From a virus: a stretch of DNA of 23,135 nucleotides. A model generated the notes under the pieces. It was given only the letters and a program-made list of their open reading frames with translations, had not been told where the DNA came from and ran no database searches. The number at the start of each line of letters is the position of its first letter. Position 1 is the first letter of the stretch. Where the stretch lies: positions 1 to 23,135 of the IMG/VR virus record IMGVR_UViG_3300044547_001113; one strand, given 5' to 3'. Below, one piece after another: positions 6,741-23,088 of the stretch. The position numbers were made by a program, and so were the translations under genes.

Positions 6741-9700
6741 TTATAAAGTGAATGGAGGACTAGTAACCAATTCTTTTATTGCATCACCACCGAACCCTTT
6801 TGGATAATATTCCATAACTAATGTAAACACCCCTAAACCATTAACAGTACAAACTTTTGTACCATTTGTACTCTCTCCAGCGATACAACTTGAAGGAACC
6901 GGAAATGAATCTCCGGGTTTAAAGAATTGAGAAGAACCAACCCATTGGAAATTAAATGGTCGATTACCAGTATCAAACTTGAATGAGATGTAACCACCCG
7001 CGGGTTTTTTAATGTTAATATAATTAAACGCGTTTCCTTGTATATTAGGACTCTCACCAAGAGATATTATTGATAATTGTGATGTAGTTGCCGGTTGTGA
7101 ATTAGGAGTAAGAGTAGATGGTTTAAAATAAAAATTAACACATCTAAGAGCTTTATTAGGGTATTTAACTTTATCAACGGCACTTGAGGTCACACAAAAT
7201 TCAATTGTAACAACTTGTTTATTTCTAATTGGATTTTGGGCAAATTGACTAATAGGTGTATTAATTAACATATCAGCAATTTGGCTATATGTAATTGTAA
7301 AAATATTATTATTCACATAATTTGTAATATCTGTTTTTACCGTTCTATTTAAAGTTGTTTTGACTTTATTATTTTCTAATGTCTCATCAAATATTGAAAT
7401 AGTCATTTCAACTTTAGTGTCAAGTACCCAAGCCCCAACTTGTGGGTTAACCGAAATTGTTACTTTCTCAGTAACTTTACCACTTACTAAATCTTGACTT
7501 GTCGATATTAGTGGTTCCGGCCCATATAATTGTTGATTAGAATTTGGTGCGTCTGCTTTAGGAGCATTTACAATTTGATTCTGTGGGTTTTGATATCCTC
7601 CCGGTGATGCCGCGGCAGATGCTGGTAATGCGGGGTCATAAGTATATTGGTCAATTGTTGTAAATGTACCAAAATCAGTAGTGACAACAATAAACCCTTT
7701 CTTAACCACATTATTAGGTAAGAATTTAGGTGTAATAACTCTCATCGTTGAATCATTAAACACCGTTATACCTGTCATTCCAACCTCAACTCCGTTAACT
7801 TTAACCGATTTAACACCATTAAAGTTTCTACCATTAAGTTGTACAATCGTCCCCGTATTACCTGATAATGGTGAGAATGATGATATAACCGGTGGTGGAC
7901 AAGATTGACCAGGTAATGGTGGAATCGGTGAAGGTGTTGGTGTAACACCCGGACTACTACCTTTATTATCGGTTTCATTTATCTGATTTAATAAATCCGC
8001 AACAATTTCTTTAGTTGCAACCTCAACCCCTTTAGACAATGCAGACGTTAAAGCCTTTTCCATTGTCCTTTTTAAAGTTTTATACTCATCGATATTTTTA
8101 TCGTAATCACTTGGTGAAACATTCTTTTGAGGGTAGAAACAAACATAATATTTTACCAAACCAATATCTAAAACTCTGTCAATATTATTAATCAACCTAT
8201 CTCTCATAAAAGTAATATATGTATCGAGTGTTGAAAAACTTGCCAACGGTAATGAAATATTAGTCGATGGATTTGTTTGAACATTAACACAAGAATAAGG
8301 TTTTAAAAATAATGTTGATGTTGCTCCGTAGTTAATATCTAATGAAACTGATGCCCAATTATTATTCCACCCATTAAATTTACCCGCGTTACTATTACTA
8401 ATTTTTTCAAATGAACGAGCATAAGAGATACAATAAATAATAGTTTGAAGTACCGGTAGATTTGGTATTAACCTCTTAAGAGCCGACGCAAATTCTGCCT
8501 CAGTAATACTAGTTTTGGTCGCGTCAACCACATTATATCCCGCGTTAAGATATACTGGAAGAACTTTACTACTACAAGTATTTGAAGCTGCTTTAGTTGA
8601 ATTAGCGTTTTGTTGAATATTTTTACTTTTATTTGAATCAGTTGATGCCGATAATACATTAATAACATCTTTCTTAATTTTAAGAATTGATTCTAATTTA
8701 GTTAATAAGTTCTGATTAACACTTTGAATGAAGTTATCTATCGCGGGTAAATCATATACTCCTTGTCTAATCCCTTGAAATGATGTTTGAAATTGACCCG
8801 GTTGAATACTATGTTCAACTTGTTGTATCATATATGGTCCATTAAACATTGGGACGTGTCTTAAATTAAAATACATGGTTGGTTGTAATAACGCATTTCC
8901 TAAACAAACAACATTACATTTATAACTTCTCTGTTTGTATAGATTATATAAACTTGCATTTTGAGTTGTAACATTTTTTCCTGATGATTGGTCAATCATA
9001 TTAATTTGAGCATTTATCGATTCTGATGTTGCGGTCCCATTATCTTGGGAAACACTAAATGAATAGAATATACTCTGATTACGAGTTCCAATATCAACAT
9101 TAAATCCAACACATTTGTTAGATAAAGCCCAATCTTTTTTACCCTGTTGATTTTCAATTAATGGATTTTCAGACGCTCTTCTCATTTCAAAACCATCATC
9201 TCTAAATCTAAAATTACCTTTTGGTAAATCTAAATATTGAGATGGTTTACCTACATAAAAACAAACCATTTTTGAACTCGATTTTCTATAGTCGACATCC
9301 AAGAATGTTCCCCACATACTATTAGCAAATCCTAATGAACCCTCTGATTTATTTGGAATAACTGTTCCATCAACATCTTGAACATTATAAAAATTAATAT
9401 AAGCAGGTAAATTCATTACTGTGAAATTATTACTAATTAATAATCCACTAATGAAGGTGTAAACACTCATAGCTTGGTTTAACGAATAATCACCATCTTT
9501 ACCACCAACTCCAAACATCCCTTGTATATCAAAGATGTTTAATATGATAGTATCACCAATATTTCTTGATGCCCTATCTAAAAATAACATATCCTCAAAT
9601 AATGTTTTTGTTTTAAAGTCACCACCCGCAATCCACTTATCATTAAGAGCTTTGAATACTTCGTAATTTTCAACTTTACTTTGTTCCCCATCAATAGCAC

Positions 9701-12700
9701 TCCTATTTACCCTTTCAGGTAATTGTTGTTGGTTTGGTAAATCTCTTCTAACCCCATCTAAAACTAAATTTAAGAAATTGTCTTGTAATACACTTTCATT
9801 GTTCAAGTACTGATTAATTTGATTTTGAAATTGAGCAACCGTAATTGTTGGGTTTTTTAATTTTTGAGTTGCGTACATCTTAATTATTGGTGCCAATAAA
9901 ACAACATTATCCGTTGTAAATTCAATATTATTATTCACAAAGAAATCCGTTATGTATGAACCGGTACTACTATATTCAACATTTCTTATCGTTGAAAATC
10001 CAACTTCAGTTTCGAGTGCTATCCACGCGTTAGGATTTAACCCTTTTGATTGAGAAACCGTTAACGTACCTCCATTTGTTGGAAGAGTATTTTGAATGTA
10101 AGGTCTAAATTTAACAGGGTCAACAACTTTTTGAGTGTTATTATGAGATAAATAAGAATTAAAAAGTCTTCTTTTATAATCAGATGGATTACCATATCTA
10201 AATAAAACATCATAATTCATAAAATCTTTAATACCACCTTGGAATGTATTATATTGATTAGTAATTGTATTATTAAAATATTCGTCTTCCGTCGCACTTG
10301 CAGATTTTGCAGGAACTGACATTAACCCTCTAAATAATGATTGAAAATTTTTAAAATTATTATTATCATCAACGGTTGAGGTATAAAAAGAAGTTGTTTC
10401 TTTTATTGTTGAAATATCAGTAATTGGTTTACAGAAATTTAAAAACTCTTGTTCAAATGAGTCTAAAATTTTCTTCTCAAATACTGAAAGGATTTCTTCA
10501 ATTTTAGTATACTTATCCTCATTTAATAATGACATAGGAGATTGTTCCTCACCATTATTAATAAAGTTTAAATATGAGTCAGGCTGAGGGTATTTAATCT
10601 GATTGTTATCAAAATAACCATAATTTGGTGCAGACCATAGAGTTCTAACCGAACCATTGTATATATTCGGATTAAATGTAAAATCAACTACAGCGTTATT
10701 AGTTGTTGTTAAATTTTCAACACAAGCAATTTGAGTTTGGTTATAAAAAGTACCAAAAGAAGGTACAACAAAATATTCAACACCTTTAGTATTATTAGTA
10801 GGGTCACAATCTATTCCGGTACCAAAATCTTTATTTTCTAACAACACTGAATATGTAAATAAATTTAACGTTTTACTATTTCGAGACGCAGTAATATTTG
10901 AGTTTTCAAAATTATAAATTTTCATTCCATTATTAACACTACTTTGAATCTCGTCATTAGTATAATTGTCATATAACTCAAACCCCTTGTAAAACACGTT
11001 AAAGTCATTTACAACTTTAGGATAAAAACCAATTTGCATTTTAACATCAGTTGAATTCTCCTGTTGTAATGTAATAGTTGTTGGTACGTTATTTATTTTA
11101 AAATCATATGTTTGAGTAACCGAACTTAAAATAGGACTATAATTGGTAGTATAATCAAAATTCTTCCAAGCACTATCCAAAATATCTGTATTCGATTCTT
11201 TATATTTTTTATAACGATGCCAAACAGAACCATATTTTAAAATCCAAGCGTATGGTAATTTGTGAATAGCACCAAACTTATTAAAACATGACGCGATATA
11301 ATCTAAGTCAGTTGTAATATCATTTGACAATGATTTATATCTTTCTCTTAGTGATGCTAATGGTAACGAATTCAAAAACAAATAAGCCGATTGAACAAAC
11401 GGATATGGGTCACTTGTTCTAATATTTTGTACACCATTTTGAATTGAATTAACAAAATAAGGTGTGTTCAATATTGAAGTTGTAGTTCTAAATGGTAAAG
11501 CATTTGTTGGGGTTATGTAATCACAATACCCTTCAGTCGCCACAAAAGTTTTTGGTGTTCGAAACTCATAAAAACCATTTAATCCCAATAATGCAAACAC
11601 AGTAGGATTTTGATTTTGATAAAAAGAAAAATTTGTTACAGGTCTATTCGTAGTAAAATCATATACGTCTGTGAAATTTGCAATAACTTTTCTTGGTTCA
11701 AAAACTTTTAAAGTTTGTTTTGTATTAAAAACTTCATTTCCAACCGATTTATTACTTGAACTTAAATTGTTTAGACACCAAGTAGGGTCCGTATAAGGTA
11801 ACGTATCAATAATCAATGGCTCGTTAGATGCATTCGATAATAAAGATTGTAACGCGTCTGATTTAGTACTTGATTGTGGTAGTTTACCAATATCATTAGT
11901 ATTTAAAATACTGTAAGAATTTTCTGTTAAATTTTTAATATATGGAGTAACAAAAAAATCTCTAATATAATCTTGATAAGCCCTACCGGTTCCTGAATTT
12001 GAAATAGTTTTTAAAAACTCCGGATAATTTGAGGCCTTTAAATCGTAATTTTTTAATTTTAAACTTAAATATGGAGAACTCACACCAATCCCTTTAACAA
12101 TATTATTAACCTCAGCCTCAGAATTTAATTTAATTAATGAATCAATTTGATTTTGATTAGCTCTAATTAAATTTGAATAATGTGATGTTAAAAATTGTCT
12201 TTCCCATATTTCATAAAAGAATTTAACTTCTTCTTTGTTAACATAAGGTAATCCTTCTGATGGAAACTCAATTGCATTAATATTAATCCTATTCGTATCT
12301 CTTTGATTATCTAATGGTGGTGGTGCTGACGGCTGGCTAAATTTTTGAGTTAAACCAATCATATATTCTTCCACAAATTCAACCTCAGGCCATTTGTCAT
12401 ATAAATAACCTTGGGTTAAGTCAACAACTGATGGGTCCGCAATATATTTTAATTGGAATCTTCCTTTAGTGTCTTCAGGTGTTTCAACAAAAAATAACGG
12501 CCATGGATAGACAGGTATCTCAGAATTACTTAAACCTTGATTTGATTGTTGTGCCTCTGTTGTAATAACCACTTTTTGTACTGTCTCCGAACTTGGCGCT
12601 GACGAAGGATTATCTAATATTGCTTGTTTTCTAACCGGGTCATATTTTACGTTCCATGCGTTTGTATGAACGTCATCCATTAAACGAATAAACGCTTCAG

Positions 12701-14429
12701 CCGAAGCCATTACAACTGCAATCATATTTCTAACCGTTGGTTTGAATCCAATACCTGTGTCAGTATCTTCAATTTTTCTTAACAATTCAGCTGAAATTGA
12801 CGCCTCATATTCTGACAATTTTTTATTTGCCTGTGCCTCTATTAATGATATTTGATTGTCAAATCTCCCATTACCTTCAAATATAAAAAATTTTGTATTA
12901 ACTATATCAACCGAGGTCTTACCATTGGTTTCAGTTTTTGCCGCCGCAGGTGTTTTTGTACGATAAATCAATTCTTTAACTTTTTGTTCATCCTCAATGG
13001 TTGGTAATACTTTACCTGTTTGTAACCTAACTGTTTCGTTCCAATTAATAGTCTCATCCGTTGGTGGGGCTATTTCAATCGTTTTTAATAATATTGGATT
13101 AGCAATTGGAGATTCTCCATTTTTACCTAAAGTGGCATTTTCAGACAAAGCATTATTAAATTTTGTTATATAAGATTCCAATAATGTCATCGCATAGTCC
13201 TTATCTTCTCGACTCAGTTCCTTAAAGAAATATATTTTTTGATTCCCATTAGTCACAATAGGTTTTGGATTTAAATATTTATTGAACCATGAGATATTTG
13301 AACCTCTAACAGCATCAAAGTATTGTTTTAGAACTTCTTTATAACTTCTAATATTAGTAAGAGGGGCAACTTTTGCTGGAGGGAAAGATGCCATTATATT
13401 ATTCTCAAACGTTTGTAATTTAGTCATTAACTGAAATAAAGTTAATTCCGGTAAATCAGGTGGAATTAATCCTTTGGATTTATATTCACTATAAACCTCA
13501 ACAATTTTTTGATAACCTTTTTCAGAAACAATTTGAGTAACAACCTCATCTTGACTTAAGGCATTATTTTGAGAAGCCTTACCCTCAACTTTAGATTGAG
13601 ATTCAGCTTGTTTGTTAGATTCTTGAGTACCTCCAGGAGTTGTAGATATGTCAAATCTTTGACCATACATATGTGGTACCGCAAGTAAATGTCCCATAGA
13701 TATTTCATTTAGAACATTAAACTTATAACCTTTAAACTTTAAACTAACTTGGTAATTTCCACTAAACGAATTAAATCGAGCATTAAAAGTTTCTAAATTT
13801 AACTGATATCTAATGGCCTGACCATAATATCCTTTAAGTGTTAAATAAAATTGTGGATATGGTAAATTAAAAAACGCAGCGTATGGTGAATTATTACCCA
13901 ATTGAAATAACGCTTTCCCTTGAACGTCTTCCAATTCCATTGTAACTGAAGGAACAAATGATGAATTAGTGGTAACATTAATCTGTGTAATACCTAATAA
14001 ACCATTATCGAAAACTTCTTTTAAATTTGCGGGAGAACTAGTAAAATAAGGGGCATCACCATTTTTTGGGTCATTAACCTTTTCCATCATTTGATTAGCT
14101 CCTTTAAATTGGGTTGAATTTTCACCTGTTAACTCATCGTAGTAACCCACTCCTAAAAACGAATCTTTAGTTGGTTTCAACATATTCATTTTGGCAACAG
14201 AAATAGTTCTAATTCTATCTTCAGGACTACCCCCTACGGCTAATTTAGTTCTTGGGAGAACTTCCGCTTCCAAATTTGCATACATAACCAAACTCTCATG
14301 GTCAACCAATCTTTCTTGAATTTTACCCTGAGAGTCAATTGTTTTATTTGGGTCAACTACAATAATATTGTTGTAATCAAACTCAACTAAAATATTTCCG
14401 CTGTTGTCTGCTTGTAAGTTACCTGCCAT
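6741..14429 (-). CDS. Giant baseplate hub-like structural protein with IPT/TIG domain
   Basis: 2562 residues, the largest gene of the window and far longer than the T4 hub proteins gp27 (391) and gp5 (575). Residues about 140-250 carry a strand-rich region (GYYGQAIRYQLNLETFNARF) of the type found in hub/tube domains. Residues about 1865-1895 read YMIQQVEHSIQPGQFQTSF, the V-H...G.F.T pattern that closes many tail hub domains. The segment 1895-2155 is helical, with RSFEKIS, GWNNNW and FMRDRL, and could be a cell-wall-active domain, though I cannot assign one. A Pro-rich linker (PTPSPIPPLPG, about 2160) leads to an IPT/TIG immunoglobulin-like domain (about 2173-2260: PVISSFSPLSGNTGTIV). The last 300 residues look beta-rich. 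The ATG overlaps the stop of the preceding gp53-like gene by 11 bases, so translation is probably coupled. T4 also has gene 53 next to gene 5. The baseplate location is well supported; the exact equivalence to T4 genes is not. Confidence 0.8.
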   Translation of the reverse strand: MAGNLQADNSGNILVEFDYNNIIVVDPNKTIDSQGKIQERLVDHESLVMYANLEAEVLPRTKLAVGGSPEDRIRTISVAKMNMLKPTKDSFLGVGYYDELTGENSTQFKGANQMMEKVNDPKNGDAPYFTSSPANLKEVFDNGLLGITQINVTTNSSFVPSVTMELEDVQGKALFQLGNNSPYAAFFNLPYPQFYLTLKGYYGQAIRYQLNLETFNARFNSFSGNYQVSLKFKGYKFNVLNEISMGHLLAVPHMYGQRFDISTTPGGTQESNKQAESQSKVEGKASQNNALSQDEVVTQIVSEKGYQKIVEVYSEYKSKGLIPPDLPELTLFQLMTKLQTFENNIMASFPPAKVAPLTNIRSYKEVLKQYFDAVRGSNISWFNKYLNPKPIVTNGNQKIYFFKELSREDKDYAMTLLESYITKFNNALSENATLGKNGESPIANPILLKTIEIAPPTDETINWNETVRLQTGKVLPTIEDEQKVKELIYRTKTPAAAKTETNGKTSVDIVNTKFFIFEGNGRFDNQISLIEAQANKKLSEYEASISAELLRKIEDTDTGIGFKPTVRNMIAVVMASAEAFIRLMDDVHTNAWNVKYDPVRKQAILDNPSSAPSSETVQKVVITTEAQQSNQGLSNSEIPVYPWPLFFVETPEDTKGRFQLKYIADPSVVDLTQGYLYDKWPEVEFVEEYMIGLTQKFSQPSAPPPLDNQRDTNRININAIEFPSEGLPYVNKEEVKFFYEIWERQFLTSHYSNLIRANQNQIDSLIKLNSEAEVNNIVKGIGVSSPYLSLKLKNYDLKASNYPEFLKTISNSGTGRAYQDYIRDFFVTPYIKNLTENSYSILNTNDIGKLPQSSTKSDALQSLLSNASNEPLIIDTLPYTDPTWCLNNLSSSNKSVGNEVFNTKQTLKVFEPRKVIANFTDVYDFTTNRPVTNFSFYQNQNPTVFALLGLNGFYEFRTPKTFVATEGYCDYITPTNALPFRTTTSILNTPYFVNSIQNGVQNIRTSDPYPFVQSAYLFLNSLPLASLRERYKSLSNDITTDLDYIASCFNKFGAIHKLPYAWILKYGSVWHRYKKYKESNTDILDSAWKNFDYTTNYSPILSSVTQTYDFKINNVPTTITLQQENSTDVKMQIGFYPKVVNDFNVFYKGFELYDNYTNDEIQSSVNNGMKIYNFENSNITASRNSKTLNLFTYSVLLENKDFGTGIDCDPTNNTKGVEYFVVPSFGTFYNQTQIACVENLTTTNNAVVDFTFNPNIYNGSVRTLWSAPNYGYFDNNQIKYPQPDSYLNFINNGEEQSPMSLLNEDKYTKIEEILSVFEKKILDSFEQEFLNFCKPITDISTIKETTSFYTSTVDDNNNFKNFQSLFRGLMSVPAKSASATEDEYFNNTITNQYNTFQGGIKDFMNYDVLFRYGNPSDYKRRLFNSYLSHNNTQKVVDPVKFRPYIQNTLPTNGGTLTVSQSKGLNPNAWIALETEVGFSTIRNVEYSSTGSYITDFFVNNNIEFTTDNVVLLAPIIKMYATQKLKNPTITVAQFQNQINQYLNNESVLQDNFLNLVLDGVRRDLPNQQQLPERVNRSAIDGEQSKVENYEVFKALNDKWIAGGDFKTKTLFEDMLFLDRASRNIGDTIILNIFDIQGMFGVGGKDGDYSLNQAMSVYTFISGLLISNNFTVMNLPAYINFYNVQDVDGTVIPNKSEGSLGFANSMWGTFLDVDYRKSSSKMVCFYVGKPSQYLDLPKGNFRFRDDGFEMRRASENPLIENQQGKKDWALSNKCVGFNVDIGTRNQSIFYSFSVSQDNGTATSESINAQINMIDQSSGKNVTTQNASLYNLYKQRSYKCNVVCLGNALLQPTMYFNLRHVPMFNGPYMIQQVEHSIQPGQFQTSFQGIRQGVYDLPAIDNFIQSVNQNLLTKLESILKIKKDVINVLSASTDSNKSKNIQQNANSTKAASNTCSSKVLPVYLNAGYNVVDATKTSITEAEFASALKRLIPNLPVLQTIIYCISYARSFEKISNSNAGKFNGWNNNWASVSLDINYGATSTLFLKPYSCVNVQTNPSTNISLPLASFSTLDTYITFMRDRLINNIDRVLDIGLVKYYVCFYPQKNVSPSDYDKNIDEYKTLKRTMEKALTSALSKGVEVATKEIVADLLNQINETDNKGSSPGVTPTPSPIPPLPGQSCPPPVISSFSPLSGNTGTIVQLNGRNFNGVKSVKVNGVEVGMTGITVFNDSTMRVITPKFLPNNVVKKGFIVVTTDFGTFTTIDQYTYDPALPASAAASPGGYQNPQNQIVNAPKADAPNSNQQLYGPEPLISTSQDLVSGKVTEKVTISVNPQVGAWVLDTKVEMTISIFDETLENNKVKTTLNRTVKTDITNYVNNNIFTITYSQIADMLINTPISQFAQNPIRNKQVVTIEFCVTSSAVDKVKYPNKALRCVNFYFKPSTLTPNSQPATTSQLSIISLGESPNIQGNAFNYINIKKPAGGYISFKFDTGNRPFNFQWVGSSQFFKPGDSFPVPSSCIAGESTNGTKVCTVNGLGVFTLVMEYYPKGFGGDAIKELVTSPPFTL

Positions 14430-14742
14430 AATAATAAAAATGATTTTCTAACGCTGCCTTATAATCCTGTAAAGATGGTAGTAAAGGAAATGGAATTATC
14501 AAGATAGCCCCGTCATATATATAATTTTCCAACCCACCAAATTGAGGATTAGCTTGTAAAATTAACCAACTAAAATATGGTGAATTATAATACTCTTGTG
14601 AAACTTTATCCAATCTACTTTTAGCAACTTTATAGATATAAGCTTTGTCAGTAGTTTTTTGAGGTAGTTGCACATACGGAACTACGGTTTGTTCACCGTT
14701 AATTAAAAATTCACTGTATCTATTCCAATATTGAAAAGCCAT
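14419..14742 (-). CDS. Small LysM-like baseplate wedge protein, gp53 type
   Basis: 107 residues. The core, from YIYKV (about 36) to GAILIIPFPL (about 79-88), follows the LysM pattern: strand, a helix with RLDKVSQEYYNSP, the W-L-I-L-Q-A-N segment, then a closing strand that ends in IP. In tailed phages short LysM-like proteins of this kind hold the baseplate wedges to the hub, and T4 gp53 carries such a fold. The start codon overlaps the stop of the 1677-residue gene by one base (TAATG), and its own end overlaps the giant hub gene by 11 bases, so all three are probably translated in a coupled manner. The N-terminal MAFQYWNRYSEF is aromatic-rich, typical for an interface. It could instead be a generic LysM tail protein. 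Confidence 0.75.
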   Translation of the reverse strand: MAFQYWNRYSEFLINGEQTVVPYVQLPQKTTDKAYIYKVAKSRLDKVSQEYYNSPYFSWLILQANPQFGGLENYIYDGAILIIPFPLLPSLQDYKAALENHFYYYGR

Positions 14743-17700
14743 TAATTAAGTTTTACTTTTGAAATATATGCCGCTGAATTAACTCCATCTTCACTATTCC
14801 ATTTGTTTATGTCAGTATTTCTATTTGTTGTATCACCCAATGATGAAATCATAGTTTGTTGAGATTTCTTTTTATTATCAGGAGCATTACTTAATGTTGT
14901 ATAAGTGAACTCTCGGGTTTTTTTATCAAAAGGAGTATATATCATGAAATTTTTTAGTGGTGTTTTTTCAATATTATCAATGAATGATTTTGTAATATTT
15001 GTTTCATTCAAAAATAATGGTTTTGTTTTAACCAACCAATAATCATCAAATTTTTTCTCAATATCGTCAAACCCGGTTCCAATAATACTAGCATTACCAA
15101 TTATATTACCAATCATCGCAGTTTTAAATGTTTCATATTTTTTTGAATCAAGAATATCATCTGAAATAATCATATAAACTCGTTTGAAAATATCATTTTG
15201 GAAGTCATTATTTTTACTAAAAGGATTAAACACTTTTTCAACTGTAGGTGCATCGATACCCGTTTTACCTTTAGTGTCAGTTCCATAAACTAAAATACCT
15301 GTATATTTTTGTCCCTCATACGTGAAATCATAAGGACTCGAAATAATTTTATTAAATTCAGTAATACCGGTTTTAATTGTATCGATATCATTAACTAATT
15401 CAATTAATGTGTTCGCAACATCATTTGATGTAATATTAACATTTGTTGTACCACTTGTGTTATAAACCTTAACAGGTCCTGATTTCGCTTGATATCCATC
15501 AGTACCCATATCAGTCATCCCTTGAAAAATAATAGTATTAGCTCTACCTAATGTTTGAATATAAGTTTGTTCAATATTCGTAACATCTTGAGTTATTTTA
15601 CTAATCGCATTTTGAAATGAACCTCTTTTGTTTTTAACTAAATTTATATAATTATCCTTAAGTTGTCGAATTACCTTAGTTGAAAACCCAAATGAAGGAG
15701 ATGACATCCATTGTATAAGTCCTTCATCTCCATCTGAAATATTCTTCTGTAATGACGCAAAAATTTCATCAAATCTTTTTTCAACATTACTTGGTTTACC
15801 AAATAATACAGTTGGATTTTCAGATACTCTTATAGAACCTTGAGTATATGACCTTTCTAACATCCATTGTTGACGAACAGCGTTGTTATATTGATTAACA
15901 CTTTCTTTTGTTTTATTAACAATTGTTTGAAAATAAGTTTGAGTTTCTTTAACAACTTTAACCATAAAATCAGAATAACTTAAAGTACCTTTTTCCTCAG
16001 TTGCCGTAACCTCATTTGTTGAAATTGTTCCAATTGTACTATTATTATTTTGTCCATTTTCAACCTCTGCTTGATTCAGTGTAGGTGGTGACGGAGGTGG
16101 TGCCATCGCCAAAAATTCTCTATCTAATGACTCAAAAAATTCCGTATTTTTGGTAGTAACATCCGCTCTATCGTCCCAAATCTCGGTATTAGCATAATAA
16201 TTAAACGTTAACGCATTTTGTAACTTATCAATTGACTCTTTTAATCCACTACCACCAACAAAATTAAATCCCATTGTTACATTTGCAATCATAGGTTGAA
16301 TACCAATACCCTCAGGATTGATATCAAGTGATTCATATTGTAATGACAATGACGTTGGTATTATTTTAGTATTATAAAAATCCCCAACACGTAATATCAA
16401 TACTGGAGGTGCTCCAAAAGAGGTATTAGTAGCATTATTATACTGTAATTGAGGAGTACCATTTATTTCTTTAATTGTTGGAATAGTGTCTCCCGGTCTT
16501 AAACATTGTTGTAAAAATGTTAGACGAGAGTTTAACCCTTCCGGAGTTGTTGAATGGAATGCCGGTTGAAAGAATTTTAACTTATCTCTCAAGTTATCAT
16601 AAACCATAGGTGTTTCTGCCTTTATTGTTTCAAAATAATCACATTCTGATAATAACGCTCTTAAAACTCTTTTAGTAATATTATCTCTAGGTTTATATTC
16701 TTGACTAATAACCTCTTCTTTAACCGTTTTTAATACTTTATTCTCTTCAAGAACTGTAGTAAATTGTGCCGGAGGTGTAGTTGTTGGGTTATTTAAAGTT
16801 GATTTAATTGCACTAATATAGGCTCTTCTACATGCCATTGCACCATAAGTATAAACTTCTTTAGCCCCCACTTTAATATCACCACCTACAACACTAGAAT
16901 CTTGGTCGGTACAATTTACACTTTGTTTACTAACAAAAGGTAACGTATATGGGGCCTGTCTTGATTTAGAAGCTAAAGGTAATGTAGTGGTTTGTTCCCC
17001 TAAACTCCTACCTTGATTTACTAATAATCGTTTACCAAACTCCTTTTTAGTATTTTCATTTTGTTGGAAAAATTTAATTGCCGATTCAATCCTTCTTGTC
17101 GCTAATTCAGTATTATACGACGGACTCGCAGGTGCGGAACAACTTGCGTCAATTGTTATTGTCACAATACCCTGAGTATTAGCACTTAATTGTTTACCAA
17201 TATCAATAGCCAATTGTTTCATTACCTCATAATTAGGTGTTACAACCGTATTAAAAACCTCAGTAGTTTGTGCCGCGTTTGGTTTACCAGCATAAGTACC
17301 TTTATTACCAATATATAAATCGTATTGAGATGGGTAAGCACTTACATTATTTTTTTGAGGGTAATCATTTTCAAAATAAAACCCTAAATCTTTATACTTC
17401 CCAAATAAATCTTCACTACTTGCTTGAGATACGTTTGTGTCTGCGCCTGTAGGAGAATTATTACCTGTCTGAATTGTTTTTTTAATATATTCAGTTTGTT
17501 CTTTTGTTGTTTCTTTTGAAGTTATTGCTTGTTGTAACAAATATAAATCATTAGGATTAACCGTATAATATTTTTTTGCTAATTCATATAAATCATATTT
17601 TCTACATCCGGCAAAGAATGAATCTAAAATACTATCAATTCTTACTTTATTTGTTTCATTAGCTAAAACTTTATTAACAACAACATTTAAAGATGACGGA

Positions 17701-19775
17701 TGGTCAACAACTATTTTCCAAGTTAAAGTACCAGTACGAGAAGTATTTTTATAAGTGTAAACAGGTTCCGGTCTTCCAAGAAATTCAGATGTGTTCCAAT
17801 TTGCAGATACTTGTTCACTAAATGTTAAACCATATGGTGGAAACCACATAACTCGACCTCCATTAGGACCTCTCTCACAAACAGGTAAATCAGAAATCGC
17901 AAAACCAGGAGTACTTGATGTTCTCCACGCCAAATTTTCTAATGAAAACATATACTTTTTAGCATATGCGTCATTTTGAGTTCCAATCAAATTAGTCGAA
18001 TCTTGTCCACCTTCTTGTTTGTTTGGAGCAATATTTAAATTATAGGTATTATCAAACACTGAATCTGCAAATCTTCGACCTGATGTTGTAATACCGTCTA
18101 CTTTTTGTAAATCATTATATTGTAGGTAAGGTACATCTTTTGCAAAAATACGACAATACTCTGTTCCAACTTCTTGTCCCACAGCACCAACATATCGATA
18201 TACTCTTGAACCTTTAGTTATTTCTTTATATCCATCATGGAAAACTTTACTAACTTGGTCAATTGCATTACCTACGTGTTGTAATCTTCGACCTCCTTGA
18301 GGTTGGCTATTAATTATTCTCTGAGTATCATCTAAAATAGAACCACCTTTAAAAGTCCTGTTTGTCGATTCAGTTGTATTATATGACGATGGTTTAAAAT
18401 CTTCATCTTGATTTGTTACAACCCCACCTAATCCAACTTTTTTTCCGGCATTATCTTTATACTTTGGAGAAACCCAAGTAAAACCACCTTCAATACCACC
18501 ACCATTAGAATAAGTAGGACCATTAGCCCCTAACCTAACTTCTTGACTTGGTCCTTCATAAAGTTGAGCCAACTCTTGAGGTCCGTATACCGGTGATTGT
18601 TGCTCTTTTCCAAATTGGTCAACAGGTAAATCACCACCTGGAGAAAACACTCGAGACGGTTCAGAAGACACAGAACCAATATAGTAATTACTATTATCAG
18701 ATAAAGTTCCGGTTAATACACCCGCAACTCTATCAAATATACCTCTAACTAAATTTGGTTTATATTTGTTATAATCAATATTTTTAAATAAACGAGACCT
18801 TTGACCAGCACCTGTGTTGTTGTAAAATATTTGAGAACCTGTTTGTGTTCCACCTAATAACTGATTAAAGAAATTACCAATACCAGTACCAGCAATTGCA
18901 TTGGTTACTTGTTGGATGGTTGTTGGTTGTCCCGGATTAATTGTTGGGTCAAAATAAGAACCAGGTATTAAGGAAACAGGTAAAATACTTCCACCTAATC
19001 TTAAAGCAAAATCAGCCGCTGCTGTTAATGGATTTGCAGGAACGGTAATTTGCCAATTTGGTTCTAATATTGGAACTTGTCCTGAAATGATATTCAATAA
19101 ATCATTCCCACTATTAACATTTAATATATTGGCTTGTCCTATTGTCTCTAATCTAATTCTAGTTGCGATTCTTTCTTGAAACTCATTTCTAAGTGTTTGA
19201 GCACCTAAACGAGCTATATATGAATCCTGACTTAGATTACCATTACTACCGGTTGGGTTTGTCGATAATAAAATAGATAACGGAGAATATGATGATGGAA
19301 CAATTGGCCCCGGATACGGTTGTCCATTACTTTGTCTGTCTTGGTCAGGTCTAACTGTTTCTAAACTTGAAAATGATTCCGCCGAGTCAAACACATTTAA
19401 CCCATCAGCATAAGCGTTTAATGGTCTCCATAACCTTACCGCATCATAACCCTCATCAACAATATGAGCATCTTGTTGACCAGGTCCATATTCACCTTGA
19501 TTAGAAATACTATTAGTTAATCCATTTGGGTCAGGAACTTGTTGATATCCTCCCTCATTACCATATCTATTTAAAGGATATAGTTGGTTTGCTAATGATG
19601 GATTATCAATAAGTTGGTCAGGACTATCAATTACAGAGAAATCCGATGAAATATATTCATACGGAACTTGGACAGAAGGTCTGTTTGGAGATTTAGCATA
19701 AGGTACTAAATTTCTCGTTATAAGTTTTTTTCTGAACGAATCCGAGTTAATTAAATCTAATGGACTATTTGACAT
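14742..19775 (-). CDS. Large baseplate / tail-tube-initiator-like structural protein with an OmpA-like segment
   Basis: 1677 residues. Residues 1-240 are low in hydrophobics and rich in Pro/Gly/Asn/Ser. Residues about 625-690 (VMWFPPYGLTFSEQVSANW, then FLGRPEPVYTYKNTSRTGTL) match the FP...W...GR..P...Y..T.R pattern of tail-tube-like and baseplate tube-initiator domains such as T4 gp48/gp54. A second tube-like stretch lies at about 1118-1205 (GIGIQPMIANVTMGFNFVGG, then LQNALTFNYYANT), a pattern I associate with large structural proteins of T4-like phages. Between them, about 850-1000, is an OmpA-like pattern: a strand TITIDAS, NTELATRRIESAIKFF, and later CRRAYISAI. A Pro-rich stretch (APPPSPPT) sits near 1225. 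The C-terminal 400 residues are largely helical. It follows the tape-measure gene after 28 bases and overlaps the next start by one base. The role in the virion is confident; the exact T4 counterpart is not. Confidence 0.8.
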   Translation of the reverse strand: MSNSPLDLINSDSFRKKLITRNLVPYAKSPNRPSVQVPYEYISSDFSVIDSPDQLIDNPSLANQLYPLNRYGNEGGYQQVPDPNGLTNSISNQGEYGPGQQDAHIVDEGYDAVRLWRPLNAYADGLNVFDSAESFSSLETVRPDQDRQSNGQPYPGPIVPSSYSPLSILLSTNPTGSNGNLSQDSYIARLGAQTLRNEFQERIATRIRLETIGQANILNVNSGNDLLNIISGQVPILEPNWQITVPANPLTAAADFALRLGGSILPVSLIPGSYFDPTINPGQPTTIQQVTNAIAGTGIGNFFNQLLGGTQTGSQIFYNNTGAGQRSRLFKNIDYNKYKPNLVRGIFDRVAGVLTGTLSDNSNYYIGSVSSEPSRVFSPGGDLPVDQFGKEQQSPVYGPQELAQLYEGPSQEVRLGANGPTYSNGGGIEGGFTWVSPKYKDNAGKKVGLGGVVTNQDEDFKPSSYNTTESTNRTFKGGSILDDTQRIINSQPQGGRRLQHVGNAIDQVSKVFHDGYKEITKGSRVYRYVGAVGQEVGTEYCRIFAKDVPYLQYNDLQKVDGITTSGRRFADSVFDNTYNLNIAPNKQEGGQDSTNLIGTQNDAYAKKYMFSLENLAWRTSSTPGFAISDLPVCERGPNGGRVMWFPPYGLTFSEQVSANWNTSEFLGRPEPVYTYKNTSRTGTLTWKIVVDHPSSLNVVVNKVLANETNKVRIDSILDSFFAGCRKYDLYELAKKYYTVNPNDLYLLQQAITSKETTKEQTEYIKKTIQTGNNSPTGADTNVSQASSEDLFGKYKDLGFYFENDYPQKNNVSAYPSQYDLYIGNKGTYAGKPNAAQTTEVFNTVVTPNYEVMKQLAIDIGKQLSANTQGIVTITIDASCSAPASPSYNTELATRRIESAIKFFQQNENTKKEFGKRLLVNQGRSLGEQTTTLPLASKSRQAPYTLPFVSKQSVNCTDQDSSVVGGDIKVGAKEVYTYGAMACRRAYISAIKSTLNNPTTTPPAQFTTVLEENKVLKTVKEEVISQEYKPRDNITKRVLRALLSECDYFETIKAETPMVYDNLRDKLKFFQPAFHSTTPEGLNSRLTFLQQCLRPGDTIPTIKEINGTPQLQYNNATNTSFGAPPVLILRVGDFYNTKIIPTSLSLQYESLDINPEGIGIQPMIANVTMGFNFVGGSGLKESIDKLQNALTFNYYANTEIWDDRADVTTKNTEFFESLDREFLAMAPPPSPPTLNQAEVENGQNNNSTIGTISTNEVTATEEKGTLSYSDFMVKVVKETQTYFQTIVNKTKESVNQYNNAVRQQWMLERSYTQGSIRVSENPTVLFGKPSNVEKRFDEIFASLQKNISDGDEGLIQWMSSPSFGFSTKVIRQLKDNYINLVKNKRGSFQNAISKITQDVTNIEQTYIQTLGRANTIIFQGMTDMGTDGYQAKSGPVKVYNTSGTTNVNITSNDVANTLIELVNDIDTIKTGITEFNKIISSPYDFTYEGQKYTGILVYGTDTKGKTGIDAPTVEKVFNPFSKNNDFQNDIFKRVYMIISDDILDSKKYETFKTAMIGNIIGNASIIGTGFDDIEKKFDDYWLVKTKPLFLNETNITKSFIDNIEKTPLKNFMIYTPFDKKTREFTYTTLSNAPDNKKKSQQTMISSLGDTTNRNTDINKWNSEDGVNSAAYISKVKLN

Positions 19776-19803: not shown

Positions 19804-21600
19804 TTAGTAAGTTTTTGAAACAGGTTCTTTTGAGTCACCAGGTATTAACCTAACAATATAATCCTTAAATCTTGACTCATTAAAGGTAGTATCTAAAATT
19901 TGTTTTAGTTGTTCTGATGAAAGTCCTGCAGGAACTTTAACATCGACTTCAATTTTTCCTCCAACATCAACAGTACTTTTAGTGGTTATATTTTGATTTT
20001 GATAAATTGTTTTTTCATTTGTAATTTTATTGGCATTTGAATCTATTGGGGCAGTCTTAGATGATGCTCCCGCACCACTTATTGATGAAGCTGCATTAAC
20101 CCCTGCAGCTGCAACTTTCTCAATCGGTGTATCACCTAATTTACTAGTAACATTTTTACCATACTCTTTTAATGCATCAGTAAACTTATTTTGAACTGAT
20201 TCCATTTGATTACCAACTTTCATTAAGTAATCCGATAATGTTTGAGTTGCGGGTTTAATACCCTCTTTAAAATCCATTGCCATAGTACCCAAATCTTTCA
20301 ATGCTGTTTCAACTTCTACCCTAGCACTTTTAGTGTCTCCAAATTTTTTAGAAGCTTCACCACCTAATACATCCGCAGTTTTTTGAGCTCCAATTATAGT
20401 TTCTTTAACAGGTTTTGCGGTTGCGGTACCTCCAAGAAAAGCGTTTTTAATTGCCGCAACATCCCCTTTAACGGTTTCCGAAATGTTCATTTGAACTCTG
20501 GCAATCTCCTCTAAACTCTTTGGACCGTCTTTTTGTTCTTGTATTAATTTATCAAATTCTTTTTGAGTTACTTCTGATAATTTTTTAGTTTCTTCTTCTC
20601 CTTTTTCATTTTTGATTTTAACTTCATACTCTCCAGTTTCACCCATTTTAGCAATATTTGCCAAGAATTGTTTATCTTCTTCAGTACCTATTGTTATTCC
20701 AGCCAAATTAACTGCCGATAATCTTTTGTCTAATTCCGCCGCGGCTAACCCCATTTTACTCATTTCCGCAGCACTAACACCGGTTTGTTTTTCCATCTCT
20801 CTAAGTGTTAACACACCTTGAGGATTTATTTTAAAGGTTTTTGTTTTCTCATCAAAATATGTAAATTGTTTTGCAACATCCGCTAAACTATCTTGTAAAC
20901 CTGATGGGTCATTAATAGACATATTCATTAATTGGAATGGGTCTGCTAATGCACCTGCCGAAACTCCTAATCTTTGAAATGCAGATGCAACTTCAATCGC
21001 TCCGTCAGGGTCTAATACTTTATCCGCCAATCTAAAGGTCTCATTCATATTAAACCTCAACATTGATGCTTGTGCTGCCATTTTAGTTAAACCAACAACA
21101 CCACCTTCAAATTGGAACCTATTCATTTGTTCCATATTGCTAGTAACAGATTTCATTACCGCTTGTGTGTTACCACCAATACTTTGAATATATTCTATAG
21201 ACTCTTCTAATTGTTTAGGAATCTGAGCCAAACCAACACCAATATCTAAAAAAGAATTGGTCATTTCCCTTGCACTAATACCTAATACTTTCTGAGCCGC
21301 GTAAAGTTTTTCAACCTCCTCAGTGCTCGCAATAACATTTCGACCAGATGCATCAGCAACTTCACCAATAGTTTTGGCAACATCAGTCATTGACCCACCT
21401 AAACGATTGACCATAGGGAGTGCATCTGCGATACTTGACATTAGTATACCAACTCGTTCTCTACCCTGACCAAAAACCTTATTTATCTCAATAGATGATT
21501 TTTGTATCTCAACAACGTATGACGCCAATTCTGTCGCAACATCAAGAGAGCCAATAAGTGATTTTTTATATTCTTCCGGTGATTGTTCAGCTGCTTGCAT
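19804..21600 (-). CDS. Tail tape-measure protein, T4 gp29-like
   Basis: 598 residues, almost the same as T4 gp29 (590). It would lie inside the tail tube and set its length; at about 1.5 angstrom per residue the tail would be about 900 angstrom, close to T4. The sequence is mostly helical and rich in Ala, Lys, Glu, Met and Gln with few aromatics (VATELASYVVEIQKSSIEIN; MTDVAKTIGEVADASGRN). This is typical of tape measures. A loop of charged residues (NEKGEEETKK, about 330) breaks it. The last 70 residues switch to beta-type sequence (TKSTVDVGGKIEVDVKVP), as expected for a compact C-terminal end bound to the hub. It follows the tail tube and the chaperone-like gene, the usual gene order for tape measures. 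The ATG at 21600 follows TTTTAAATT with no Shine-Dalgarno. Confidence 0.83.
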   Translation of the reverse strand: MQAAEQSPEEYKKSLIGSLDVATELASYVVEIQKSSIEINKVFGQGRERVGILMSSIADALPMVNRLGGSMTDVAKTIGEVADASGRNVIASTEEVEKLYAAQKVLGISAREMTNSFLDIGVGLAQIPKQLEESIEYIQSIGGNTQAVMKSVTSNMEQMNRFQFEGGVVGLTKMAAQASMLRFNMNETFRLADKVLDPDGAIEVASAFQRLGVSAGALADPFQLMNMSINDPSGLQDSLADVAKQFTYFDEKTKTFKINPQGVLTLREMEKQTGVSAAEMSKMGLAAAELDKRLSAVNLAGITIGTEEDKQFLANIAKMGETGEYEVKIKNEKGEEETKKLSEVTQKEFDKLIQEQKDGPKSLEEIARVQMNISETVKGDVAAIKNAFLGGTATAKPVKETIIGAQKTADVLGGEASKKFGDTKSARVEVETALKDLGTMAMDFKEGIKPATQTLSDYLMKVGNQMESVQNKFTDALKEYGKNVTSKLGDTPIEKVAAAGVNAASSISGAGASSKTAPIDSNANKITNEKTIYQNQNITTKSTVDVGGKIEVDVKVPAGLSSEQLKQILDTTFNESRFKDYIVRLIPGDSKEPVSKTY

Positions 21601-21629: not shown

Positions 21630-21655
21630 AAAAGGACTGAGTTTTCAGTCCTTTT
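21630..21655 (-). terminator. Hairpin terminator overlapping the end of the frameshift reading frame
   Basis: Perfect 11-bp stem AAAAGGACTGA / TCAGTCCTTTT with a 4-base loop (21641-21644). On the minus strand it ends TTTTGTATTTATA, so the U-tract is short; on the plus strand it ends in TTTTT, so it may act in both directions. The TGA that ends the out-of-frame extension (21647-21645) is built into the stem. Confidence 0.65.
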
Positions 21656-21797
21656 TATTATCTTCTAACCATTTATCTAACAAATATTTTCTAACAAATA
21701 AGGGCATCGTTACAAAATCTTGATAGGATATGTTCATTAATTTGTTCAAATAATAGAATTCATCTATTTGTCCCTTCCTATAATCAGAAGAAAGGGC
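21645..21797 (-). CDS. Out-of-frame 50-codon extension of the tail chaperone (probable +1 frameshift product)
   Basis: Read in the +1 frame relative to the 247-residue gene, the sequence after the T6 run stays open for 50 codons: ALSSDYRKGQIDEFYYLN, then a short joint, then YQDFVTMPLFVRKYLLDKWL and an acidic end with KKD and a TGA at 21647-21645. The segment has the look of a real small helical domain (amphipathic helices, MP-x-x-x-RKY). It fills a stretch that would otherwise be untranslated. Joined to the first 243 residues of the upstream gene it makes a 293-residue protein. The only ATG in this frame (21737) would give 30 residues and cut the first helix. Order and size match the T part of lambda G/GT: tail tube, chaperone, out-of-frame extension, tape measure. 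A T-run sequencing error that splits one gene is the main alternative. Confidence 0.65.
   Translation of the reverse strand, partial: ALSSDYRKGQIDEFYYLNKLMNISYQDFVTMPLFVRKYLLDKWLEDNKKD
21772..21796 (-). promoter_or_regulatory. Hairpin just downstream of the putative slip site
   Basis: On the minus strand CCCTTTCT (21796-21789) can pair with AGGAAGGG (21779-21772): eight pairs, one of them G-U. The 9-base loop TCTGATTAT contains the zero-frame TGA stop. It begins two bases after the T6-C run. Structures after a slip site often stimulate frameshifting; here the role is inferred. Confidence 0.45.
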
Positions 21798-22527
21798 GAA
21801 AAAAGTCCACCCCAAATCCGACGTTAACTGTCATCTTTTCTCCTGATGGGGTGCTTACAACTCGACTCATGTCCAATTTTGGTTCATTTTCATTCATAAA
21901 TTGTCTAATATACTTAGAATCTGAAATAGGCATTTGTTCAACAAATTTAGATATTTCTGACTTATCCGTATTTCCGTTTACTTCAACAATCTCTTTTTGA
22001 AGTCTCCAAGTTATTTTTGGAACTACTCTACCTTGAGGGTACGTCGATTCTAACTTACTAATTTCCATTATTTCACCATAATTTAATGGTTTTAATTTAA
22101 TTGTTGCATTAGATTTTGGTAATATAGTTGTAAATGTACCATCCTCATTTGGAGACTGACCTTTAATAACATTTAATTCATCAAGAGCTACTGTCGTTTT
22201 GAATGGTTTTTTAGTAACCGGGTCAATTAAATTTAAATCCATTTCAGGTCCAAAACCAGTATTTCTTAAAAATACTAATATTGACTCAACATCACCTTCA
22301 ATCATATCTTCAATCCTAAGGTCTGGTTCGTAAATTTTATTTCTTAATAAATTTGTGGTAATATCTAACCCACCTGCCATTAAAATATTTTCATCAGAGG
22401 CGGTTAAATAACCCACCTTGATTGATTTTTTTTTGTTTTTGTAAAAAACTCCACCTGATGGTAATGGTACCACATCGTGAGGTAAAGTAAAATTTTGTTG
22501 TCCGTAATCTGTTGTTTGATTTTCCAT
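21784..22527 (-). CDS. Baseplate hub / tail-assembly chaperone protein of the T4 gp26-gp51 type
   Basis: 247 residues ending GVDFFRPFF. The N-terminal signature PLPSGGVFYKNKKKSIKVGYL, then TASDENILM (residues about 21-50), is typical of the T4 baseplate protein family that includes gp26 and gp51. Other visible parts are an acidic helix around LRIEDMIEGDVESILVFLRN (70-89), a beta-type region to 170, and a basic-acidic helical end. Gene order (tail tube, this gene, tape measure) is that of tail-assembly chaperones such as lambda gpG, which keep the tape measure soluble while the tube grows; a T4-family chaperone role is therefore inferred. The ATG is only 3 bases after the T-tract of a hairpin. 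Near the 3' end the codons TTT TTT CGC precede a 50-codon overlapping frame, so a longer 293-residue form is likely (see that entry). Confidence 0.77.
   Translation of the reverse strand: MENQTTDYGQQNFTLPHDVVPLPSGGVFYKNKKKSIKVGYLTASDENILMAGGLDITTNLLRNKIYEPDLRIEDMIEGDVESILVFLRNTGFGPEMDLNLIDPVTKKPFKTTVALDELNVIKGQSPNEDGTFTTILPKSNATIKLKPLNYGEIMEISKLESTYPQGRVVPKITWRLQKEIVEVNGNTDKSEISKFVEQMPISDSKYIRQFMNENEPKLDMSRVVSTPSGEKMTVNVGFGVDFFRPFF
21798..21804 (-). promoter_or_regulatory. Putative +1 ribosomal frameshift site (TTT TTT C)
   Basis: In the zero frame the codons are GAC TTT TTT CGC, with TGA four codons after CGC. A Phe-tRNA sitting on TTT can re-pair with TTC one base forward, and the next codon CGC should be poorly served in an AT-rich genome. 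Both favour a +1 slip. The new frame stays open for 50 codons. The site is read directly; slippage is inferred. Confidence 0.6.
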
Positions 22528-22530
22528 ATA

Positions 22531-22565
22531 AAAAAATAACCGTAAAGTTTATTGTCTTTACGGTT
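22531..22565 (-). terminator. Terminator between tail tube gene and chaperone gene
   Basis: Perfect 10-bp stem AACCGTAAAG / CTTTACGGTT (22538-22547 and 22556-22565), 8-base loop, followed on the minus strand by ATTTTTTT. It lies 34 bases after the tail tube stop and ends 3 bases before the next ATG, so it would both limit read-through and crowd the ribosome at that start. This fits a need for many tube subunits and few chaperones. Confidence 0.83.
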
Positions 22566-22599
22566 AAATATAATTAGTATTGATTTTTTATAAAGAGTA

Positions 22600-23088
22600 T
22601 TAGTAAACTAAAACACATCTATCCATTCTTAATGATGCTGTAATATCCGCAAGAGCGTCAGTACTATATCCTAATGAACCAAAATTCACTCCTGTTAAGA
22701 ATGTACCATATAAAATCCATTTCTCAACAACAACTCCTGTTGGGTCTAACATCTCAAGGTCAATGTCTTTTTTATAACCTGCAGCATAACCCATACGACC
22801 TGTTACAGATTCTGCGTGTAAACGAACCCACTCCATAAGAGCTTGAGACGCAGATGGTCCAATTGGGTCTCTGAATTTAACTGAAATCTCATCCCAGTTA
22901 AATCTTCCCGCAACATAAGTTGAGGTATTTAAAAATTGAATTTCCGTAGATGCAATTTTAATTGAAGGTCTTGAAGCACTTTCCACGAACCATTCGTTAA
23001 TTCCTAAACTTGATGGAAACCTTAGTATGAATCGATTCTGTCTTTTCGGTTCGTAAGGAATCGGCATTTTCATCAATAAATCAGCCAT
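22600..23088 (-). CDS. Major tail tube protein, T4 gp19-like
   Basis: 162 residues against 163 in T4 gp19. It polymerises as hexameric rings into the inner tail tube. The N-terminal PIPYEPKRQNRFILRFPSSL, followed by a Trp-Phe-Val-Glu strand (about residues 33-36) and SASRPSIK, is typical. RFNWDEISVKFRDPIGPS (about 62-79) forms the central strand pair, ALMEWVRLHAESVTGRMG is the single helix, and DIDLEMLDPTGVVVEKWIL with GTFLTGVNFGSLGYSTDALADI gives the second sheet. Only one cysteine is present, close to the C-terminus. The gene is the first of the visible tail module and is followed by its own terminator, as expected for an abundant virion protein. The start is preceded by TTTAAAATAAT and no Shine-Dalgarno. 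Confidence 0.93.
   Translation of the reverse strand: MADLLMKMPIPYEPKRQNRFILRFPSSLGINEWFVESASRPSIKIASTEIQFLNTSTYVAGRFNWDEISVKFRDPIGPSASQALMEWVRLHAESVTGRMGYAAGYKKDIDLEMLDPTGVVVEKWILYGTFLTGVNFGSLGYSTDALADITASLRMDRCVLVY

What the first reader, a model, noticed from the sequence alone, without database searches (positions are those of the whole stretch)
21645..22527. Probable +1 programmed frameshift in the tail chaperone gene of a T4-like phage
Seen: the 247-codon gene ends GAC TTT TTT CGC CCT TTC TTC TGA. In the +1 frame, after the T6 run, 50 further codons are open and read like a small helical domain (DYRKGQIDEFYYL; FVTMPLFVRKYLLDKWL). The frame fills the whole gap up to a terminator hairpin. 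Known: many tailed phages place a frameshifted chaperone pair (lambda G and GT) between tail tube and tape measure genes, and this gene is exactly there, between a gp19-like and a gp29-like gene. Inferred: Phe-tRNA slips from TTT to TTC with a rare CGC in the A site, giving a 293-residue form. Most described cases use -1, so a +1 site in a gp26/gp51-type protein would be unusual.
Basis: partly seen in the sequence, partly recalled or inferred. Interest (0 to 1): 0.85.

Follow-up and report, generated by a model that had tools for sequence, protein, structure and literature searches.

The report
+1 frameshift in phage tail chaperone
A tail-building helper gene of a T4-like phage is made in a short and a long form because some ribosomes are predicted to jump one base forward at a conserved site; the two-form trick is known from other phages, but the forward direction, kept in some 270 related phage sequences, differs from the usual backward jump.

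Summary
The gene (22527-21784, minus strand) is a T4 gp26/gp51-type tail assembly chaperone (phrog_150, PF12322) next to a gp19-like tube gene. Its +1 frame continues for 50 codons after TTT CGC, giving 293 residues. One sequence alone would be weak evidence: 24% of genes in two related phages have such an open frame. Relatives decide it. Of 278 relatives, 273 keep the +1 frame open for at least 30 codons past the stop. The extension is under purifying selection in that frame (pN/pS 0.12, against 0.95 and 2.27), folds confidently as three helices, and extends the phrog_150 match. Isolated phages have it too (immuto, SP-15, LIS04, RM378), so it is not a sequencing error. The slip codon is TTT before C or T, CTT before T, or apparently CCC before A. 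T3-only and CCC sites argue against transcriptional slippage and favour +1 over -2. In a 97% identical relative, the A-site CGC is the only CGC codon in 75 long ORFs. Cyanophage S-PM2 has the same domain in the -1 frame, and T4 uses two genes. Frameshifted T4-like chaperones are already published (Vladimirov 2022, not readable here). I call this a +1 variant of a known kind. Translation itself is untested.

The parts
21784..22527 (-). 0-frame gene, 247 codons: short tail assembly chaperone (TAC-N), T4 gp26/gp51 family
   Evidence: phrog_150 E 7e-13; PF12322 29.1 bits, cut-off 24.5; AlphaFold model pLDDT 86 matches SP-15 and T4-like hub proteins in BFVD
21810..21813 (-). GGGG with invariant GGG glycine codon 239, four codons before the slip codon; possible Shine-Dalgarno-like stimulator
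   Evidence: GGG fixed in 63 unique genes where Gly is mostly GGT/GGA; at codon -4 in 58 of 60 unique window-clade sites
21799..21804 (-). T6 run; the P-site slip codon is the second TTT (21801-21799, codon 243)
   Evidence: TTT fixed in all 63 unique genes; TTT followed by CGN at 182 sites among relatives
21796..21798 (-). 0-frame A-site codon CGC; its C (21798) is the base predicted to be skipped
   Evidence: 0 CGC in 6,975 other window codons; the only CGC in 75 long ORFs of relative G002
21784..21786 (-). 0-frame stop TGA, three sense codons after CGC
   Evidence: TGA, TAA or TAG in relatives, so stop identity is not fixed
21645..21797 (-). +1-frame extension (TAC-C), 50 codons plus TGA; long form 293 aa
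   Evidence: pN/pS 0.12; three-helix model pLDDT 93; fused protein extends the phrog_150 match from 49.6 to 56.0 bits
21630..21655 (-). terminator-like hairpin containing the end of the extension
   Evidence: 11-pair stem, T-rich tail
22600..23088 (-). upstream tail tube protein, gp19-like
   Evidence: phrog_4542 6e-24, phrog_45 4e-9
19804..21600 (-). downstream 598-aa gene, tape measure protein by position only
   Evidence: Position matches the tape measure genes of immuto and SP-15; no sequence support

Best explanation
[quoted passage not shown] Most ribosomes read frame 0 and make the 247-residue TAC-N, ending FFRPFF. A minority stall with tRNA-Phe on TTT in the P site and the very rare CGC in the A site; tRNA-Phe re-pairs one base forward on TTC, GCC enters the A site, and the ribosome makes the 293-residue TAC-NC ending in a small three-helix domain. 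By analogy with lambda G/GT, many TAC-N and few TAC-NC coat the tape measure protein and the extra domain recruits tail tube subunits. Shown here: the conserved arrangement, selection on the extension, family membership, the site variants. Inferred: that the shift occurs, its direction (+1 rather than -2), its rate, the rare-codon stall and the chaperone role.
For: 273 of 278 relatives have the +1 frame open at least 30 codons past the stop, against 18 in the other frame; the three 'none' cases run into contig ends. Extension pN/pS 0.12 in frame, 0.95 and 2.27 out of frame; differences by codon position 639/210/1475. Same +1 domain in isolated phages immuto, SP-15, LIS04, GXN1, Mel-JY01, RM378. 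Slip-codon classes all allow full re-pairing at +1: TTT-C, TTT-T, CTT-T; six further sites lack these but carry CCC-A. TTC TTT CGC and CTT TGG sites lack a long T run. GGG239 and TTT243, upstream of the dual-coded part, are codon-fixed. CGC is the rarest codon and in G002 is used in long ORFs only here. Fused protein extends the phrog_150 match; TAC-NC profile matches T4 gp26 over 188 columns (hhalign probability 78.5, E 1.7e-5) and the gp51 C-terminus over 27 (probability 5.9, E 0.0065).
Against: No protein or ribosome-profiling data. TGG, the A-site codon at about a quarter of sites, is not very rare (7.9-11.9 per thousand), and phage G003 encodes tRNA-Arg(ACG), tRNA-Trp and tRNA-Phe, so the rare-codon stall is not universal. 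The GGG element lies 8 nt before the slip codon, not 3 as recalled for prfB, and Flavobacteria barely use Shine-Dalgarno pairing (my knowledge). No conserved downstream RNA structure was found. The +1/-2 choice rests on re-pairing logic; 70 of 81 TTT-C sites re-pair equally at -2.
Confidence: 0.88

Rival explanations
1. The ribosome shifts -2 rather than +1 at the same site; the product is one residue longer.
For: Frame is identical for +1 and -2; with TTT TTT, tRNA-Phe also re-pairs after -2 (70 of 81 unique TTT-C sites).
Against: 11 of 81 TTT-C sites lose pairing at -2 but none at +1. The six sites lacking a TTT-Y or CTT-T site carry AAT CCC AGT, where by inspection only +1 re-pairs (CCC to CCA).
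Confidence: 0.06
2. The downstream ORF is a separate small gene with its own start, as annotated in immuto gp038, SP15_046 and RM378p030.
For: Public records annotate 37-58-residue ORFs there.
Against: Conserved +1 residues (LSS.YR...DE) begin right after the slip site, but the first in-frame start-like codon is usually at extension codon 16 to 30 and varies. The dual-coded codons 245-247 are codon-fixed. T4 gp51 carries N part and C domain in one chain (phrog_150 positions 3-281).
Confidence: 0.03
3. RNA polymerase slippage on the T6 run makes mRNAs of altered length (transcriptional slippage).
For: T6 run in most sites.
Against: Homologous sites with only T3 (TTC TTT CGC; TTT CTT TGG) or CCC AGT keep the same frame relation; T6 is short for slippage (my knowledge).
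Confidence: 0.02
4. Sequencing or assembly error, or a decayed gene.
For: None beyond the frame break itself.
Against: Same break in 273 relatives including complete genomes of isolates, with purifying selection on both sides.
Confidence: 0.01

Closest known systems
Lambda G/GT tail assembly chaperone frameshift
   Same: Short and frameshift-extended long form of a non-tube gene beside the tail tube gene; short helical C-terminal domain in the shifted frame
   Different: Lambda shifts -1 at a homopolymer heptamer; here +1 at TTT CGC. Sequence relation to lambda G was not tested
T4 gp26 and gp51 (phrog_150, PF12322; identified as tail assembly chaperones by Vladimirov, Gautam and Davidson 2022, Virology 566:9, known here only through citing papers)
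   Same: Homologous N part; same C-terminal domain position in the profile
   Different: T4 encodes N (gp26) and NC (gp51) as two genes without a shift
Cyanophage S-PM2 phrog_150 locus
   Same: N part plus C domain in another frame, followed by a long ORF
   Different: The C domain lies in the -1 frame there, +1 here
Listeria phage PSA +1 frameshifts (PMC5009743) and halovirus HSTV-2 +1 G-T shift (PMC5009743)
   Same: +1 programmed shift in phage tail genes; CCC re-pairing like the six CCC AGT relatives
   Different: PSA shifts are in capsid and tail shaft genes, at CCC; HSTV-2 is an archaeal virus
Bacterial prfB (RF2) +1 frameshift
   Same: Forward re-pairing of a P-site tRNA on CTT T in the immuto-type relatives; G-rich element upstream
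   Different: prfB has UGA in the A site and a Shine-Dalgarno 3 nt upstream (recalled); here a sense codon and 8 nt spacing

Membership tests
T4 gp26/gp51 family (phrog_150 / PF12322) | Significant match to the family profile | tested here: met
   phrog_150 E 7e-13, PF12322 above cut-off; structure matches T4-like hub proteins down to Aeromonas phage 25 gp26
T4 gp26/gp51 family (phrog_150 / PF12322) | C-terminal domain (profile about 234-281) present | tested here: met
   Fused 293-aa protein matches to profile position 253 and gains 6.4 bits over the short form; weak gp51 C-terminal hhalign match
Lambda G/GT-type tail assembly chaperone | Gene lies between tail tube and tape measure genes | tested here: inconclusive
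   Tube gene confirmed; tape measure gene by position only
Lambda G/GT-type tail assembly chaperone | Shifted-frame extension near the 3' end, conserved as protein | tested here: met
Lambda G/GT-type tail assembly chaperone | -1 slippery heptamer and -1 extension frame | tested here: not met
   Extension is in the +1 frame; the -1 frame is open only a median of 6 codons past the stop in relatives
Lambda G/GT-type tail assembly chaperone | Both forms made, bind tape measure and tube proteins, absent from virions | not testable with these tools
   Needs proteomics and binding assays
prfB-type +1 frameshift | Stop codon in the A site at the shift | tested here: not met
   A-site codon is mostly CGN or TGG; the stop is mostly 4 to 6 codons further on
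Transcriptional slippage site | Long homopolymer run conserved | tested here: not met
   T3 and CCC variants keep the frame relation

The most novel reading that the evidence does not exclude
A large, so far undescribed lineage of T4-like phages makes its tail chaperone long form by +1 programmed frameshifting at UUU-C (or UUU-U, CUU-U, CCC-A), with an A-site CGC that the phage avoids almost everywhere else, and the same gene family has switched between +1, -1 and separate genes during evolution.
Probability: 0.5. Interest if true: 0.65.

Novelty: new variant of a known kind. Interest (0 to 1): 0.5.

Why it matters
Forward (+1) programmed frameshifting is rare in bacteria, with prfB and a few Listeria phage genes as the main cases (PMC5009743 and general knowledge). 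A gene present in hundreds of phage contigs, with natural variants of the slip codon (TTT, CTT, CCC) and of the A-site codon (CGC, CGT, CGG, TGG), gives a ready panel to learn what drives +1 shifting, possibly in hosts that hardly use Shine-Dalgarno pairing. One gene family with +1, -1 and no shift lets one ask how shift direction evolves. It also corrects annotations in isolates such as immuto, SP-15 and RM378.

Tried and rejected
Conserved downstream RNA structure: none (RNAalifold energy 0 on 92 unique sequences; mean z-scores near 0, except -1.6 for a window starting at the slip codon, which I attribute by inspection to a lineage-specific CCTTTC/GAAAGG pairing). A terminator-like stem over the slip site (GGGGTGGA/TTCGCCCT): by inspection not kept where GTG is GTT and CGC is CGT. 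Solved-structure relatives: none by sequence or fold. Fold search of the 50-residue extension: no significant hit, though two tail assembly chaperones are among the sub-threshold ones. Gene similarity of the tape measure candidate: none. Full text of Vladimirov 2022 and of the HSTV-2 paper not held. A test for a phage tRNA explaining the shift: G003 carries ordinary tRNA-Phe(GAA) and tRNA-Arg(ACG), no clear link.

Full report
What is there. The minus-strand gene 22527-21784 has 247 codons and ends GAC TTT TTT CGC CCT TTC TTC TGA. Reading on in the +1 frame after the second TTT gives 50 more codons and a 293-residue protein. The extension ends inside a terminator-like hairpin at 21655-21630. 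Upstream is a gp19-like tube gene. Downstream is a 598-residue protein in the tape measure position, without sequence support for that name.

Family. The 0-frame protein matches phrog_150 (7e-13) and PF12322 above its cut-off. Its AlphaFold model (pLDDT 86) matches SP-15 and many T4-like hub or hub-assembly proteins. phrog_150 finds both T4 gp51, over its full length, and T4 gp26, over the N part only. The fused 293-residue form scores 56.0 bits against 49.6 for the short form and reaches further into the profile. A profile of the fused proteins aligns to T4 gp26 over 188 columns (hhalign probability 78.5, E 1.7e-5) and, weakly, to the C-terminus of gp51 over 27 columns (probability 5.9, E 0.0065).

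Is the extension real? In two related phage contigs 66 of 271 genes have at least 46 open +1 codons after their stop, mostly the next gene, so one open frame proves little. Relatives settle it. All 80 closest IMG/VR loci end at the same site; the extension reads through in those long enough to show it (L044 ends at the contig end). Two more family searches and a wider repeat of the first gave 278 loci with a readable stop; 273 keep the +1 frame open at least 30 codons past the stop, 18 the other frame. Three exceptions are contig ends; L204 and L206 look -1, as does LR756511. In 64 unique extensions of equal length pN/pS is 0.12 in the +1 frame and 0.95 and 2.27 in the others. The extension folds as three helices with pLDDT 93. 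Isolated phages immuto, SP-15, LIS04, GXN1, Mel-JY01 and RM378 have the same domain in the same relative frame; their records annotate at most a separate small ORF. Error and decay are excluded.

The site. Slip classes are TTT-CGN (182), TTT-TGG (60), CTT-TGG (17), CTT-TAC (3), a few others, and six loci without such a site that carry CCC-AGT. For TTT and CTT classes the P-site tRNA re-pairs fully one base forward in every unique site. Sites with TTC TTT CGC, TTT CTT TGG or AAT CCC AGT show that the T6 run is not needed, which argues against transcriptional slippage; eleven TTT-C sites lose pairing at -2 and CCC AGT does by inspection, which favours +1. Upstream +1 stops bound the shift to the last seven sense codons in a dozen relatives. 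In 63 unique genes only 7 of 122 amino-acid-conserved codon columns are fixed for one codon, and five are in the last nine: GGG239, TTT243, CCT245, TTC246, TTC247. The last three are read in both frames, which explains them; GGG239 and TTT243 are not and are candidate signals. GGG is at this position in 58 of 60 unique window-clade sites and 37 of 71 immuto-type TTT-TGG, CTT-TGG and CTT-TAC sites.

The A-site codon. CGC is absent from 6,975 other codons of the window, and TTT is followed by CGN once in 251 cases. In G002, whose chaperone is 97% identical, 30,738 codons of 75 ORFs of at least 150 codons contain one CGC, and it is this one; counting ORFs down to 60 codons there are 3 in 33,386, and short ORFs include false ones. 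This fits a stall at a rare codon. TGG sites and a phage tRNA-Arg(ACG) in G003 show that rarity cannot be the whole story.

Comparison. PMC5009743 states that the G-T frameshift is widely conserved 'except T4' and that HSTV-2 very likely uses +1; it describes +1 in Listeria phages. Vladimirov, Gautam and Davidson 2022 identified T4-like chaperones; I could not read it, and know it from its title and from PMC12846349, which cites it for poly-T -1 signals in T4-like chaperone genes. I recall its abstract as reporting frameshifting in several T4-like groups and separate genes 26 and 51 in T4. S-PM2 has the C domain in the -1 frame. So a frameshifted T4-like chaperone is known; +1 in this lineage is, as far as I could check, a variant. 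If Vladimirov 2022 already assigned +1, novelty drops to a new member.

Not shown: that the long form is made, its ratio, its partners, and the host of this phage.

Noticed in passing
L304:9240-9316 and L294:6185-6272 (phage contig G003, 309 kb): ARAGORN reports tRNA-like genes with four-base anticodons (gtaa, aagg) beside a set of over 20 ordinary phage tRNAs. They may be artefacts or expanded-loop tRNAs; neither would read the TTTC at this site.
   Followed up: partly
L088 (LR756511), L204, L206: Most distant relatives seem to carry the extension in the -1 frame instead of +1, so shift direction may have changed within the family.
   Followed up: partly
L082:4857-4967, L083:4740-4859, L087:1698-1874, L086:1781-2017: Public annotations of immuto, SP-15, RM378 and Mel-JY01 list a separate hypothetical gene over the extension region.
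   Followed up: partly
window 6741-14429 and 14742-19775, minus strand: Two very large proteins (2562 and 1677 aa) downstream of the tail genes; the part of the first that was scanned (6741-11429) and the whole second have no PHROG match; probably baseplate or virion parts.
   Followed up: no
window 22537-22566, minus strand: A second terminator-like hairpin (11 pairs, T-rich tail) separates the tube gene from the chaperone gene, so the chaperone may sit in its own transcription unit.
   Followed up: no
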